From: Streptomyces sp. TRM68416
GTDB taxonomy: Bacteria > Actinomycetota > Actinomycetes > Streptomycetales > Streptomycetaceae
Length of the DNA: 64,000 bases
Assembly (NCBI RefSeq): GCF_014596915.1
Contig: NZ_JACVWU010000002.1
Coordinates: 124,001-188,000 of the forward strand
Direction of reading: 5' to 3'
The position numbers and the translations under genes were made by a program. The stretch's first letter is position 1. Each line of letters starts with the position of its first letter. The notes beneath the pieces are model-generated. The model was not told the origin of the DNA, made no database searches, and was given only the letters and a program-made list of their open reading frames with translations. This document shows, in pieces, positions 42,121-57,498 of this stretch.

Positions 42121-44097
42121 TCAGACCTGTGTCCGCTCCTCGACGACCTTCGCGATCTTCGCGATGGCCTCGTCGAACGGGATGCCGTTCTCCTGCGAGC
42201 CGTCGCGGTAGCGGAAGGAGACGGCGTTGTTGGCCATGTCCTCGTCGCCCGCGATGACCATGAAGGGCACCTTCTGCTTCTGGGCGTTCCTGATCTTCTT
42301 CTGCATGCGGTCCGAGGAGGAGTCCACCTCGACCCGCAGGCCCTTGCGCTTGGCGGCCGAGGCGAACTTCGCCAGGTAGTCCACGTGCGCGTCGCCGATC
42401 GGGATGCCGATCGCCTGCACCGGCGCGAGCCACGCCGGGAACGCGCCCGCGTAGTGCTCCAGGAGCACCGCGAAGAACCGCTCGATGGAGCCGAACAGTG
42501 CGCGGTGGATCATGACCGGGCGCTGCTTGGCGCCGTCCGCGCCGGTGTACTCCAGGTCGAACCGCTCGGGCAGGTTGAAGTCGAGCTGGATGGTCGACAT
42601 CTGCCAGGTGCGGCCGATGGCGTCCTTGGTCTGGACGGAGATCTTCGGGCCGTAGAAGGCGGCGCCGCCCGGGTCCGGGACCAGCGGCAGGCCCTGCTTC
42701 TCGGCGACCTGGCGCAGCGTCTCGGTCGCCTCCTCCCAGACCTCGTCGGAGCCGACGAACTTCTCCGGGTCCTTGGTGGACAGCTCCAGGTAGAAGTCGG
42801 TCAGACCGTAGTCGCGCAGCAGGCCGAGGACGAAGGTGAGCGTCTTGTCGAGCTCCTCCGACATCTGCTCACGGGTGCAGTAGATGTGCGCGTCGTCCTG
42901 CGTGAAGCCGCGCGCGCGTGTGAGGCCGTGCACCACGCCGGACTTCTCGTACCGGTACACGGTCCCGAACTCGAAGAGGCGCAGCGGCAGTTCACGGTAG
43001 GACCGCCCGCGCGCGTCGAAGATCAGGTTGTGCATCGGGCAGTTCATGGGCTTGAGGTAGTAGTCCACGCCCTCGTCGAGCTGCATGGGCGGGTACATGC
43101 CGTCGGCGTACCAGTCCAGGTGGCCCGAGGTCTCGAAGAGCTTCCCCTTCGTCGCGTGCGGGGTGTAGACGAACTCGTAGCCCTCTTCCTCGTGGCGGCG
43201 CCGCGAGTAGTCCTCCATCACACGGCGGACGACGCCGCCCTTGGGGTGGAAGACGGCGAGGCCGGAGCCGATCTGCTCCGGGATGGAGAAGAGGTCCAGC
43301 TCGGAGCCGAGCTTGCGGTGGTCGCGCTTCTCGGCCTCGGCGAGGAAGTCGAGGTAGCCCTTCAGCTCGTCCTTGGACGGCCAGGCGGTGCCGTAGATGC
43401 GCTGGAGCATGGGGTTCTTCTCGCTGCCGCGCCAGTAGGCGGCCGCGTTGCGCATCAGCTTGAACGCCGGGATGAGGCGGGTGGAGGGCAGGTGGGGACC
43501 GCGGCAGAGGTCCTTCCAGCACAGCTCGCCGGTCTTGGCGTCCAGGTTGTCGTAGATCGTCAGCTCACCGGCGCCGACTTCGACGTCCGCGCCGTCGTCG
43601 GAGGAGGCGGAGCCCTTGAGGCCGATCAGCTCCAGCTTGTAGGGCTCGTCGGCGAGCTCCTCACGGGCGGCCTCGTCGGTGACCACGCGGCGGGCGAACT
43701 TCTGCCCCCGCTTCTGGATCTCCTGCATCTTCTTCTCGATGGCCTTGAGATCCTCGGGCGTGAACGGCTTCTCGACGTCGAAGTCGTAGTAGAAGCCGTC
43801 CTTGACCGGCGGGCCGATGCCCAGCTTGGCCTCGGGGAAGAGTTCCTGCACGGCCTGGGCCATGACGTGCGCGGTGGAGTGGCGCAGGATGTTCAGACCG
43901 TCCTCGGAGGAGATCTCCACACCCTCGACGGTCTCGCCGTCGGCGAGGACGTAGGCGAGGTCCTTCAGCTCACCACCCACGCGCGCGGCGATGATCGAGC
44001 GCTCGCCGGCGAAGAGGTCGGCCGCCGTAGTGCCCGTCGTCACCACGCGCTCTTCCCGCTCGGAATCGCGTTGGATGATCACACGGACGTCTGACAC
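42121..44097 (-). CDS. thrS: Threonyl-tRNA synthetase
   Basis: At 658 residues it is full length: N-terminal TGS domain, editing domain with the [10 protein letters not shown] histidines, class II catalytic core (motif 2 region [20 protein letters not shown]-like), zinc-binding Cys in KPMNCPMHN, and the anticodon-binding domain. The GTG at 44097 ([11 protein letters not shown]) is supported by AGGAGAG 4-6 nt upstream, ruling out the longer open frame. Confidence 0.97.
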
Positions 44098-44351: not shown

Positions 44352-45563
44352 TCACTCCCCGCCGCAGGCCTCCTCGAAGAAGTCGAGGTTCTCCTGCAGC
44401 GACTTCATCAGCCGGTCCCGTTCCGCCTCGTCGACCTGGACGGGTACGACGCAGGAGGCGCCGGTGAGCCTGCGGAACCCGCCGCGGCTCTCCAGCCGTC
44501 CGTGCACGCGCACGGGCAGGCCCACCAGGTGGGCGTGGCCGGCGATGCGATAGGCCTCTTCGTCCAGGGTCAGCCGGACGTGCGGGATCTCGGCCCCGGC
44601 CAGCACCCGCAGCCGTACGGCGCCCTCCCCGCGCGGCCCCGATCTGCGCATCCGGACCACCGTGCCGGTGATGCGGACGGCCACGGACGGCTCCTCGCGC
44701 AGATAGCGGGCCCCGGCCTCGCGCAGTGCCGGCAGGTCGCCGGGCGAGAACTCGACGGCCTCGGCGTGCGCCGCGCAGCCGTCCGGGACCCCCGCGCCGG
44801 GCGCCCACTCGACGGCGACCCGCGCGCCCTCGGTGCCCCGGACGAGGGCGATCAACGCCTCGGTGAGCTCACGGCTCACCCCTGCCGTCACGGCACCGTC
44901 GAAGGCGTCCATGCCGCCGGTGGCCCGCTGGTAGTCGATGGCCTCGCGGGCGGCGTACAGGGCCTGGTGCAGGCGTACGGCAAGAGGGCGGGCGGTGGCG
45001 ACGGGGGCGAAGGCGGTCAGGTGGCCGCCGACCGGGGAGCCGACGAGGACGTCCTCCAGCAGCGCGGCAGCGGGGCGGCGGTGCCGGGCGCCGTAGTAGC
45101 CGGCCCGCGCGCGTGTGGCGAGGGCGGCGGCCAGGAGCATCTGGCGGGCGGCGGCGCGCAGTTGCTCCTCGACGGTCCAGGGCACGGTGCCGGCCGGGCC
45201 GGCGGGGGCGTCGCGCCACCAGCGGATCTCGTCGCTGGGGACGACGAGGGAGACGAGCACCTCGCGCGCGGAGGGCGTGCCGCTGCGGGACAGGGCGACG
45301 AGCGCCTCGCCGAGCAGGTCCTCGCTGTCGGGGAAGGCGCGGCTCTCGGGCACCAGCAGGCTCGTCCCGCCGCCGCCCGGGCCGGGCGGGGTCCAGCGGC
45401 CGTAGCGTCCGGCGGCGCCCCCGCGGCGCTGCCAGCCGTGCCGGCGCAGCAGGGCGCCGAGGACGGCGGGGTCCACCTGGCCTGGCTCGGGGGGCCGGTG
45501 CCAGGTGTCGGCGGGGTGCGGCCGGACCGGCCGCAGGGGTTCCTCGGTGGGGCGGTGCGTCAT
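44352..45563 (-). CDS. Uncharacterised protein with OB-like C-terminal domain, coupled to a DUF4365 gene
   Basis: A 403-residue soluble protein. Residues about 30-72 form a small module (LLRRHGWQRRGGAAGRYGRW) that faintly recalls the HicA-type dsRBD fold. A helical middle region follows (about 130-245). Residues 293-375 look like a five-stranded OB fold (VAVRITGTVVRMRRSG; VGLPVRVHGRLESRGG). The start overlaps the DUF4365 stop by 4 bp (ATGA), so the two are co-translated. I do not recognise the full-length family; domain guesses are inference. No signal peptide or membrane span. Confidence 0.85.
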   Translation of the reverse strand: MTHRPTEEPLRPVRPHPADTWHRPPEPGQVDPAVLGALLRRHGWQRRGGAAGRYGRWTPPGPGGGGTSLLVPESRAFPDSEDLLGEALVALSRSGTPSAREVLVSLVVPSDEIRWWRDAPAGPAGTVPWTVEEQLRAAARQMLLAAALATRARAGYYGARHRRPAAALLEDVLVGSPVGGHLTAFAPVATARPLAVRLHQALYAAREAIDYQRATGGMDAFDGAVTAGVSRELTEALIALVRGTEGARVAVEWAPGAGVPDGCAAHAEAVEFSPGDLPALREAGARYLREEPSVAVRITGTVVRMRRSGPRGEGAVRLRVLAGAEIPHVRLTLDEEAYRIAGHAHLVGLPVRVHGRLESRGGFRRLTGASCVVPVQVDEAERDRLMKSLQENLDFFEEACGGE

Positions 45564-46126
45564 GGTCTGCCTCCCGTCCCGACCCGCGTCATGATCTCGC
45601 ACAGCGCCCGGTCGTCGAAGACGCGTGCGGTCGGTATGCGCACGGTGGTCCGGGTCCGGCCGGTGACCGGGTGGCCGGCGAGGTTGACCCAGTAGCAGCA
45701 GTGTCTGAGGTCGAGCCGGTCGTGGCTGGCGCGCAGCCAGTCGTCCTGGGACCGGGGCACGAGCATCACGACGAGGATCTTGTGCACGGAGACCGGGGTG
45801 CGGGCGAGCTTGCGCAGGTGGTCGTTGTCCAGCGTGAAGGAGAAGGAGCGGCCCGGCGGGTTGGGCGGGACCTGGTAGGTGGCCTTGAGCTGGACCTTGA
45901 TGGTGACCTCGTCGTCGACGGTGTGCCCGGGTGAGCCGTGGCTGACGTGCCAGTCGATGCCGTTGTCGGGGAACGGCTGGGACAGCGAGCAGCCGGCGGC
46001 TGCGGCCACCGCGTGCAAGTAGCCCACCTGCAGTGTCTCCATGCAGGCGGTGGTGGCGAGTGTGCCGCGATGGGGGCCCGTACGTTCGGGCAGCAGCCCG
46101 CCCCGCTCGGGCTGCGCTATCGCCAT
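45560..46126 (-). CDS. DUF4365-domain protein, PD-(D/E)xK nuclease-like
   Basis: A 188-residue soluble protein. The core matches DUF4365: METLQVGYLHAVAAAAG (Glu30), NGIDWHV (Asp58) and VTIKVQLKAT (Gln79, Lys81). This spacing of E, D and QxK is that of a PD-(D/E)xK nuclease fold in which the second acid is Gln, as in several restriction-like families. DUF4365 domains occur in defence-associated genes, but no nuclease activity can be proved from sequence. The start is the ATG at 46126 (MAIAQPERGG); another lies two codons upstream. It is translationally coupled to the following 403-residue gene and diverges from a DnaQ-like exonuclease gene. Confidence 0.85.
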   Translation of the reverse strand: MAIAQPERGGLLPERTGPHRGTLATTACMETLQVGYLHAVAAAAGCSLSQPFPDNGIDWHVSHGSPGHTVDDEVTIKVQLKATYQVPPNPPGRSFSFTLDNDHLRKLARTPVSVHKILVVMLVPRSQDDWLRASHDRLDLRHCCYWVNLAGHPVTGRTRTTVRIPTARVFDDRALCEIMTRVGTGGRP

Positions 46127-46305
46127 GACCAACAGCCTTCCCAGCCAAGTGAATTGCGTGATTCCGCGCGAACGGGCTCGCTGAACTGCAAAGACCCGTA
46201 CCTCTGTTGTCTCCTTCCGGCGTACGGCGCAAACAGCCCGGGTATCACCAAACGGGCAGAAGACGGTGCGTCAGCTGCCGTGGGTGAACGAGGGGTTGTG
46301 CAGAT

Positions 46306-47031
46306 ATGGGGTGCTGGTACGAAGGCCCGCTGGCGGCATTCGACACAGAGACGACAGGCGTGGACGTCGAGACCGACCGAATCGTTTCGGCGGCGGTCGT
46401 CGTCCAGGACGCCCCGGGCACCCGGCCGCGGGTGACCCGGTGGCTGGTGAACCCGGGTGTGCCGGTGCCGGAGGCGGCGACGGCGGTGCACGGGCTGACG
46501 GAGGACCATCTGCACCGCAACGGCCGCTGGCCGGCGCCGGTGATGCAGGAGATAGCCGAGGTACTGGCCGAACAGGCGCTCGCGGGCCGCCCGCTGGTGG
46601 TGATGAACGCGCCGTTCGACCTGACGATGCTGGACCGCGAGCTGCGCCGCCATCGCGCGTCGTCGCTCGACCACTGGTTCCAGACGAGTCCGCTGCTGGT
46701 GCTCGATCCGCGGGTGCTCGACAAGCACCTGGACCGCTACCGCAAGGGCCGCCGCACGCTCACCGACCTGTGCGGGCACTACGGCGTCACCCTGGACGGC
46801 GCGCACGAGGCGGGCGCCGACGCGCTGGCCGCCATGGAGGTCGTACGGGCGGTGGGGCGCCGGTTCGCGGCGCGGCTCGAGCGTCTCTCCCCCGCCGAAC
46901 TGCACACGTTGCAGGCGGTGTGGCACGCGGCGCAGGCACGTGGCCTTCAGGCGTGGTTCGCGCGCAGCGGCAGCGAGGAGGCGGTGGACCCGGCGTGGCC
47001 GCTGCGTCCGGATCTGCCGGCGGCGGCATGA
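46306..47031 (+). CDS. DnaQ-like DEDDh 3'-5' exonuclease
   Basis: A 241-residue protein with the DEDDh motifs in order: ExoI FDTETTG (Asp13, Glu15), ExoII NAPFDLTML near residue 105, and ExoIII HEAGADALA near 168. It is a free-standing exonuclease, not attached to a polymerase; relatives include the epsilon proofreading subunit and RNase T-like enzymes. The C-terminal 70 residues are helical and lack a known domain. The ATG at 46306 follows GAGGGG. It diverges from the DUF4365 unit over 179 bp and ends at a terminator shared with tRNA-Val. Confidence 0.93.
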   Translation: MGCWYEGPLAAFDTETTGVDVETDRIVSAAVVVQDAPGTRPRVTRWLVNPGVPVPEAATAVHGLTEDHLHRNGRWPAPVMQEIAEVLAEQALAGRPLVVMNAPFDLTMLDRELRRHRASSLDHWFQTSPLLVLDPRVLDKHLDRYRKGRRTLTDLCGHYGVTLDGAHEAGADALAAMEVVRAVGRRFAARLERLSPAELHTLQAVWHAAQARGLQAWFARSGSEEAVDPAWPLRPDLPAAA

Positions 47032-47065: not shown

Positions 47066-47071
47066 TCCCGG

Positions 47072-47143
47072 TGGGCGATACTGGGTTCGAACCAGTGACC
47101 TCTTCGGTGTGAACGAAGCGCTCTCCCACTGAGCTAATCGCCC
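47072..47143 (-). tRNA. tRNA-Val (anticodon CAC), copy 1
   Basis: A 72-nt cloverleaf on the minus strand: acceptor GGGCGAT/ATCGCCC, D arm GCTC/GAGC, anticodon stem CTTCG/CGAAG with loop TTCACAC (anticodon CAC), T arm ACTGG/CCAGT with TTCGAAC, discriminator A. The CCA end is not encoded. Reads GUG codons. Identical to the gene at 57427-57498. Confidence 0.97.
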
Positions 47144-57418: not shown

Positions 57419-57426
57419 ACTCCGGG

Positions 57427-57498
57427 TGGGCGATACTGGGTTCGAACCAGTGACCTCTTCGGTGTGAACGAAGCGCTCTCCCACTGAGCTAATCGCCC
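57427..57498 (-). tRNA. tRNA-Val (anticodon CAC), copy 2
   Basis: All 72 nt are identical to the gene at 47072-47143, with anticodon loop TTCACAC and no encoded CCA. Flanking identity stops within about three bases on either side, so it is a gene-sized duplicate rather than a long segmental one. Confidence 0.97.

What the first reader, a model, noticed from the sequence alone, without database searches (positions are those of the whole stretch)
44352..47031. Coupled DUF4365 nuclease-like protein and OB-domain partner, facing a DnaQ-like exonuclease: a possible undescribed nucleic-acid system
Seen: a 188-aa protein with E30, D58 and Q79xK81 in a PD-(D/E)xK-like arrangement is fused by an ATGA overlap to a 403-aa protein with an OB-like C-terminal domain and a small HicA-like N-terminal module; 179 bp away a free-standing DEDDh exonuclease gene diverges. 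Known: DUF4365 occurs in defence contexts. Inference: nuclease plus nucleic-acid-binding partner plus exonuclease form one DNA/RNA processing or defence module. The pair may instead be a conserved streptomycete housekeeping unit, which would be just as undescribed.
Basis: partly seen in the sequence, partly recalled or inferred. Interest (0 to 1): 0.62.

Follow-up and report, generated by a model that had tools for sequence, protein, structure and literature searches.

The report
Fixed candidate phage-defence nuclease pair
Two overlapping genes encode a DNA-cutting-enzyme-like protein and a nucleic-acid-binding-like partner; the pair is already catalogued as a candidate virus-defence system that elsewhere rides on plasmids and beside defence genes, but in this bacterial family it sits at one fixed chromosomal spot as an inherited, sometimes lost, gene pair.

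Summary
In detail: gene A (45560-46126, minus, 188 aa, DUF4365) overlaps gene B (44352-45563, minus, 403 aa) by ATGA, and a DnaQ-like exonuclease diverges 179 bp away. Predicted folds support A as a PD-(D/E)xK nuclease: the nearest solved fold is the SPARDA nuclease domain, and A has the same D/Q/K triad (D58, Q79, K81). B's C-terminal domain is an OB fold. The HicA claim is inconclusive. The pair is not undescribed: A and B match PADLOC's candidate defence system PDC-M02 (1.6e-94, 3e-185). Distant copies lie elsewhere in Streptomyces genomes (some beside DISARM genes), on plasmids of several phyla and in prophages; A was found upstream of B in 20 of 22 such regions. The exonuclease is not part of it: no relative lies near those copies, and it stays beside thrS in 9 of 20 genomes without the pair. 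What I found no report of is that this copy is fixed between thrS and dnaQ across Streptomycetaceae (11 of 17 genera sampled), under purifying selection, outside any recognisable defence island, and repeatedly deleted. Best reading: an Argonaute-free, SPARDA-like effector (A) gated by an OB-fold sensor (B), captured once and retained. Antiphage activity is untested.

The parts
45560..46126 (-). Gene A: DUF4365 / PDC-M02A protein, 188 aa, predicted PD-(D/E)xK nuclease (D58, Q79, K81)
   Evidence: Pfam PF14280 78.5 bits; PADLOC PDC-M02A 312.8 bits; model pLDDT 83.9, best solved match SPARDA nuclease domain Z 12.9, 138 aligned, rmsd 3.4; D58 38/38, Q79 37/38 of aligned relatives
44352..45563 (-). 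Gene B: PDC-M02B protein, 403 aa; alpha-beta N-terminus, helical middle, OB-fold C-terminus (about residues 291-376)
   Evidence: PADLOC PDC-M02B 613.7 bits; no Pfam family at E<=1; model pLDDT 86.8; OB matches Z 8-9.9 in the top 20 rows, residues 291-387
45560..45563 (-). ATGA stop/start overlap of A and B
   Evidence: the same 4-base overlap in 35 of 59 core entries measured (the window's own counted twice) and in most other loci listed there

Best explanation
A and B form one two-component nucleic-acid-triggered nuclease system of the PDC-M02 kind. B, through its OB fold and its other domains, senses an abnormal nucleic acid (single-stranded DNA or RNA of an invader is the likeliest ligand) and holds A; on sensing it brings A molecules together and switches on A's D58/Q79/K81 active site, which then degrades DNA, as the similar nuclease domain of SPARDA does when Argonaute filaments bring it together. 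In Streptomycetaceae one lineage of this originally mobile defence pair was captured once between thrS and dnaQ and is now inherited vertically. Shown here: gene structure, families, folds, triad conservation, linkage, mobile and DISARM-associated relatives, fixed locus, purifying selection, repeated loss. Inferred: ligand, complex formation, activation by clustering, DNA degradation, antiphage role and single capture.
For: PADLOC matches A 1.6e-94 and B 3e-185; 38 of 38 aligned A proteins match PDC-M02A. Fold of A closest to SPARDA nuclease domains, Z 10.9-12.9, whose published catalytic residues D41, Q60, K62 (passages of PMC12205087) and Q62/K64 in TmuRE (passages of PMC10810196) have the same order and QxK spacing as D58, Q79, K81. 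There the isolated domain was monomeric without detectable activity and became active on tetramerisation. OB fold in B. A lies upstream of B in 10 of 10 distant Streptomyces loci and in 10 of 12 plasmid/prophage regions fetched (the other two: record edge, and an IS6-type reading frame in A's place). Defence context of relatives: between a GmrSD-like enzyme and DrmD (L047), near DrmMI (L051), beside DrmA and DrmB (L050); CRISPR I-E; three DUF262 genes and an Abi gene. Core copies: thrS-B-A-dnaQ in 30 of 30 near loci, thrS-B-A in 20 of 20 other-genus loci; dN/dS of A 0.05-0.16 in 8 chosen pairs; no mobile sequence falls among the core sequences in trees of A and of B.
Against: I found no functional test of any PDC-M02 member. 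This copy lies among housekeeping-type genes, with no clear defence gene among 10 neighbours scanned, and is fixed rather than mobile, which is unusual for defence. Some distant loci also show no PADLOC hit in the large neighbour scanned (L043, L049). Seven of 150 genomes keep a B reading frame after losing A; in one sister pair even a truncated B looks constrained (dN/dS 0.13), though in two other A-less pairs it is 0.31 and 0.49, so B may act without A or be decaying. Frames of B are broken beside an intact A in 3 of 150 genus genomes, so A is not clearly poisonous without B. One family member has lost the QxK motif (L087). No complex could be modelled.
Confidence: 0.5

Rival explanations
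1. Domesticated housekeeping nuclease: the fixed copy no longer serves defence but a chromosomal task of streptomycetes such as repair, recombination or programmed DNA breakdown in development.
For: B match in 76 of 121 family genomes and 11 of 17 genera; purifying selection on A stronger than in mobile or DISARM-associated copies (0.05-0.16 in 8 chosen pairs, against 0.15-0.31 in 5 chosen pairs; B overlaps, 0.05-0.34 against 0.15-0.29); no defence island recognised around it; A and B distances follow those of DnaQ (Mantel rho 0.69 and 0.80, 34 loci).
Against: No B match in 22 of 150 genus genomes (a few of them incomplete), so not essential; relatives with a telling context are in mobile or defence settings.
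Confidence: 0.27
2. Toxin-antitoxin-like addiction pair: A is a toxic nuclease held inactive by B.
For: Coupled gene order and overlap; carriage on plasmids and at a prophage end; A is lost while a B reading frame stays in 7 of 150 genomes, whereas core A with no core B match at all was seen in 0 of 116.
Against: B broken into frames beside intact A in 3 of 150 genus genomes (G070, G101, G119) and split or interrupted B in four family genomes (G522, G524, G552, G575; A checked only in G524); sequencing error is not excluded. B is larger and more complex than usual antitoxins.
Confidence: 0.13
3. Three-gene module with the divergent DnaQ-like exonuclease.
For: dnaQ is next to the pair in 30 of 30 near loci and 19 of 20 other-genus loci; of 20 genomes without the pair, 9 return no dnaQ match at the thrS locus and one has a broken one.
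Against: No DnaQ relative in 28 distant or mobile loci; dnaQ stays next to thrS in 9 of 20 genomes without the pair, one with a scrap of A and one with a scrap of B in the gap; joint absence can be one deletion of neighbouring genes; the gene is a PRK07942 member.
Confidence: 0.04

Closest known systems
PDC-M02 (PADLOC-DB 2.0.0 models PDC-M02A and PDC-M02B; the PDC series is credited in PMC12988326 to a 'guilt-by-embedding' preprint, 10.1101/2024.01.29.577857, which is not held and of which I saw nothing)
   Same: Both proteins match over full length, same order and linkage; some relatives lie beside DISARM genes
   Different: This copy is not in or near a recognised defence system; it is fixed at one chromosomal locus of a family
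SPARDA (short Argonaute plus DREN-APAZ; DUF4365 nuclease)
   Same: Nuclease fold and D/Q/K triad
   Different: A has no room for an APAZ part, B shows no sequence match to Argonaute, and an OB-fold protein stands in the partner's place
DISARM
   Same: Distant A-B pairs lie beside or between drm genes
   Different: No drm gene among the window neighbours scanned; A and B match PDC-M02 models, not drm models, in the rows shown
Leptospira phage LE1 protein Q6NE06
   Same: The one whole-length fold match to B in the viral library (E 1.3e-15, TM 0.50/0.53, 12% identity)
   Different: Uncharacterised; whether an A gene lies beside it was not checked

Membership tests
PDC-M02 | A protein matches PDC-M02A models | tested here: met
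   1.6e-94, 312.8 bits, residues 1-188
PDC-M02 | B protein matches PDC-M02B models | tested here: met
   3e-185, 613.7 bits, residues 1-401
PDC-M02 | A and B adjacent, co-directional | tested here: met
   ATGA overlap
PDC-M02 | antiphage activity | not testable with these tools
   needs phage challenge; passages of PMC12988326 say validation is pending for most prevalent PDCs and the text does not name M02
PD-(D/E)xK nuclease of DUF4365 type | Pfam DUF4365 match and PD-(D/E)xK fold | tested here: met
   78.5 bits; SPARDA Z 12.9, Hjc Z about 10
PD-(D/E)xK nuclease of DUF4365 type | D...QxK active site | tested here: met
   D58, Q79, K81; 38/38, 37/38, 33/38
PD-(D/E)xK nuclease of DUF4365 type | nuclease activity | not testable with these tools
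   no assay
SPARDA | short Argonaute subunit | tested here: not met
   no Piwi/Argonaute Pfam match in any of 59 B proteins at E<=1; none among 10 window neighbours in the PADLOC scan; a fold comparison cannot exclude a distant likeness of B's middle part
SPARDA | APAZ domain fused to the nuclease | tested here: not met
   A is 188 aa and DUF4365 fills residues 34-181
OB-fold protein (B, C-terminus) | OB fold | tested here: met
   strand order and PDB matches such as SilF, SSB, PriB, RecO, Z 8-9.9, about 70-90 residues; nucleic-acid binding itself untested
HicA-like module (B, N-terminus) | HicA fold or family match | tested here: inconclusive
   helix, three strands, helix predicted; no HicA Pfam match in 59 proteins; region not folded and searched alone
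PRK07942 DnaQ-like exonuclease | NCBIfam NF005927 over cut-off | tested here: met
   302.9 bits, cut-off 186

The most novel reading that the evidence does not exclude
PDC-M02 is an Argonaute-free counterpart of SPARDA, in which an OB-fold sensor rather than a guided Argonaute assembles DREN-type nucleases into an active form, and Streptomycetaceae have turned one copy into a permanent, vertically inherited innate immune or self-destruct nuclease encoded outside any defence island.
Probability: 0.2. Interest if true: 0.75.

Novelty: new member of a known kind. Interest (0 to 1): 0.45.

Why it matters
Defence systems are usually mobile and patchy; a candidate defence pair that became a near-core gene pair of the antibiotic-producing streptomycetes and has been kept under purifying selection would be a clear case of capture of an immune module, and its active site is defined enough to test at once. 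It also offers a simple two-protein system in which to ask how a SPARDA-type nuclease is switched on without Argonaute.

Tried and rejected
Three-gene module with dnaQ: rejected as main reading. HicA module: no sequence support, left inconclusive. B as an Argonaute or APAZ protein: no sequence match; a fold comparison cannot exclude it, because the OB domain filled the lists. Weak MthK profile hits to B (E 0.05 and up) and the TIGR03399 hit to B (17.3 bits against cut-off 250) are taken as chance. Searches of viral contigs with five B queries gave one partial relative. Phylum-wide searches found B only in the genus (7 of 296; 7 of 346), but at most 5-6 candidates per genome were scored in the rows shown, so distant copies can be missed. 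My recalled S. coelicolor gene numbers for this locus gave nothing on it, so expression data were not recovered. Promoter and terminator scan: none found. The Fisher test printed is not used: its sample was not independent and it counted dnaQ presence by another rule than the report does. In the trees the reported support on the core node itself is low (0.07 for B, 0.19 for A; labels may shift on rerooting); the node that joins the core to L042-L045 has 0.999 for B, and the corresponding nodes for A have 0.90 and 0.98. Z-scores near 8, as for most OB matches, can be common arrangements (note).

Full report
OBSERVATION. A is DUF4365 (78.5 bits, cut-off 24.3); B has no Pfam family at E<=1. The only DUF4365 match in the window's own genome is A.

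FAMILY. PADLOC-DB names A PDC-M02A (1.6e-94) and B PDC-M02B (3e-185); the DnaQ-like protein gets a DEDDh model, PDC-S48 and a weak effector model. All 38 aligned A proteins match PDC-M02A, and 31 of 59 B proteins match phage family phrog_27927 of unknown function. Passages of PMC12988326 describe PDCs as candidates found by guilt-by-embedding, with validation pending for most of the prevalent ones; M02 does not occur in that main text. A full-text search for PDC-M02 gave 0 papers; one for DUF4365 gave 10, several of them on short Argonautes (listing). A paper on actinobacterial defence arsenals has no occurrence of PDC, PADLOC or DUF4365 in its main text (PMC10482375, term search).

STRUCTURE. 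The A model (pLDDT 83.9, pTM 0.78) matches SPARDA nuclease domains best (Foldseek E 7.3e-6; VIA-align Z 12.9 over 138 residues, rmsd 3.4), then Hjc-type resolvases (Z about 9-10.7) and the homing enzyme I-Ssp6803I (Z 9.8). Passages of PMC12205087 give the SPARDA triad D41, Q60, K62: D41A and Q60A abolished and K62A impaired activity, and the isolated domain was monomeric without detectable activity and became active on tetramerisation. Passages of PMC10810196 give Q62 and K64 as potential active-site residues in TmuRE. Here D58, Q79 and K81 are kept in 38, 37 and 33 of 38 aligned proteins; four of the other five at K81 have a gap-shifted QVK, and L087 reads RLT. The B model (pLDDT 86.8, pTM 0.79) has an OB fold near residues 291-376 (PDB matches SilF, SSB, PriB, RecO, Z 8-9.9 in the top 20 rows); Foldseek itself gave no PDB match to B at E<=0.001 (best 3.6e-3). 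The one match at E<=0.001 in the viral library, over 385 columns, is a Leptospira phage LE1 protein. B's N-terminus and middle were not tested alone.

DISTANT AND MOBILE RELATIVES. In 150 genomes of the window's genus, 11 carry a distant B (28-35% identity) elsewhere. Ten distant loci were fetched (L042-L051) and all 10 have A upstream of B. Neighbours: L047 has a GmrSD-like protein (Orf5/HEC-06 models) before A-B and DrmD after it; L051 has DrmMI further on; L050 has DrmA and DrmB; L048 has a GmrSD-like protein and PDC-M07A; L044 a DEAD-box helicase; the large neighbours scanned in L043 and L049 gave no PADLOC hit (10 proteins picked from the 96 ORFs scanned as a batch, whose table is capped). 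Plasmids: a B query from L047 hits 14 records in Actinomycetota, Alpha- and Betaproteobacteria, Bdellovibrionota and Spirochaetota, the window's B only 1. Two M. abscessus prophages match; in the one fetched, A and B are genes 1 and 2. Of 12 plasmid/prophage regions fetched, A is found near full length upstream in 10; in L064 it is cut by the record edge; in L062 the upstream stretch reads as an IS6-type transposase with no A match. No DnaQ relative was found in L042-L051 and L059-L076 (28 loci, three of them second copies of the same places; one chance hit E 0.44; the window-type locus L002 as control gave 4e-165).

FIXED COPY. B matches in 128 of 150 genus genomes and A in 122 of 150. Dropping genomes with only distant or scrap hits (G044 and G145 for B; G032, G044, G047, G105, G131 and G145 for A), I count core-type B in 126 (G032 and G149 mere fragments) and core-type A in 116 (two of them incomplete or in pieces). 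In the family, 76 of 121 genomes and 11 of 17 genera have a B match (G515, G556 and G581 are distant or fragment hits only). The order thrS-B-A-dnaQ holds in 30 of 30 loci L002-L031 (the best-scoring ones, so biased to near relatives). thrS-B-A holds in 20 of 20 other-genus loci, with dnaQ in 19 of 20 (L090 has a gap in A, L103 a split B). In 59 core entries with both ORFs measured (the window's own counted twice; starts picked by script), 35 have the 4-base overlap, 11 a 1-base overlap, 3 a longer one and 10 a gap of 12-102 bases. A and B patristic distances follow each other (Mantel rho 0.80) and DnaQ (0.69, 0.80), less ThrS (0.31, 0.23), but ThrS also disagrees with DnaQ (0.26) (34 loci with all four genes). 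Core sequences have no mobile sequence among them in either tree. dN/dS in 8 core pairs that I chose: A 0.05-0.16, B 0.05-0.34, DnaQ 0.07-0.29; in 5 chosen distant pairs A 0.15-0.31 and, in the 4 computable, B 0.15-0.29. Of 10 window neighbours only the HIT protein gave a (generic) PADLOC hit.

LOSS. Ten of the 126 genomes with core B lack core A: G002, G047 and G105 keep near full-length B (G047 and G105 with a scrap of A); G073, G088, G089 and G138 a B without its N-terminus; G149 has a broken B; G032 and G046 are contig ends and say nothing. No genome with core A lacks a core B match altogether, but B is broken into frames beside an intact A in G070, G101 and G119. B has no match in 22 of 150 genomes. 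Of the 20 of these that were listed and searched again, 9 have dnaQ right beside thrS with the pair gone, one with a scrap of A (L126) and one with a scrap of B (L128); one is a contig edge, one has a broken dnaQ, and 9 return none there (two of these genomes are under 80% complete). So the pair is dispensable, its remnants differ from genome to genome, and dnaQ does not depend on it. In pairs of A-less genomes dN/dS of B is 0.31 (L032/L034), 0.13 (L035/L036) and 0.49 (L039/L106, where DnaQ is also 0.49): a role of B alone is possible but not shown.

MECHANISM. Shown: families, folds, triad, linkage, contexts, locus history. Inferred: B binds nucleic acid through the OB fold, contacts A, and turns A on by bringing copies together, as Argonaute does for a similar nuclease in SPARDA. 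The rivals (domesticated housekeeping nuclease; toxin-antitoxin pair; three-gene module) are weighed in their sections. I put about even odds on the defence sensor-effector reading, because I found no test of a PDC-M02 member and this copy sits outside any recognised defence context.

NOVELTY. As a gene pair it is a new member of a catalogued candidate (PDC-M02). I found no report of its fixation at thrS in Streptomycetaceae; the searches behind that are (listings), with term searches inside papers, all in one open-licence library without preprints.

Noticed in passing
47070-47143 and 57425-57498: Two tRNA-Val(CAC) genes on the same strand about 10 kb apart; whether they are copies flanking a mobile stretch was not examined.
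   Followed up: no
42121-44097 (thrS) and relatives: ThrS distances disagree with those of the neighbouring dnaQ, A and B (Mantel 0.23-0.31), as if thrS had been replaced repeatedly at a fixed locus.
   Followed up: partly
L035, L036, L039, L106: B lacking its N-terminal domain is kept after A is gone; dN/dS is 0.13 in L035/L036 but 0.49 in L039/L106, so a function of the OB half alone is only a hint.
   Followed up: partly
L087:7076-7639: An A protein (63% identical) with the QxK motif replaced by RLT, in a locus with no dnaQ hit: perhaps a catalytically dead A kept beside an intact B.
   Followed up: no
L062:6642-8098 (Pigmentibacter ruber plasmid): An IS6-type transposase reading frame stands where A should be, directly before an intact B (the frame is named from its look and the annotated IS6 gene nearby).
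   Followed up: partly
L047, L050, L051: PDC-M02 pairs lie beside GmrSD-like and DISARM genes in Streptomyces, a recurring arrangement worth its own survey.
   Followed up: partly
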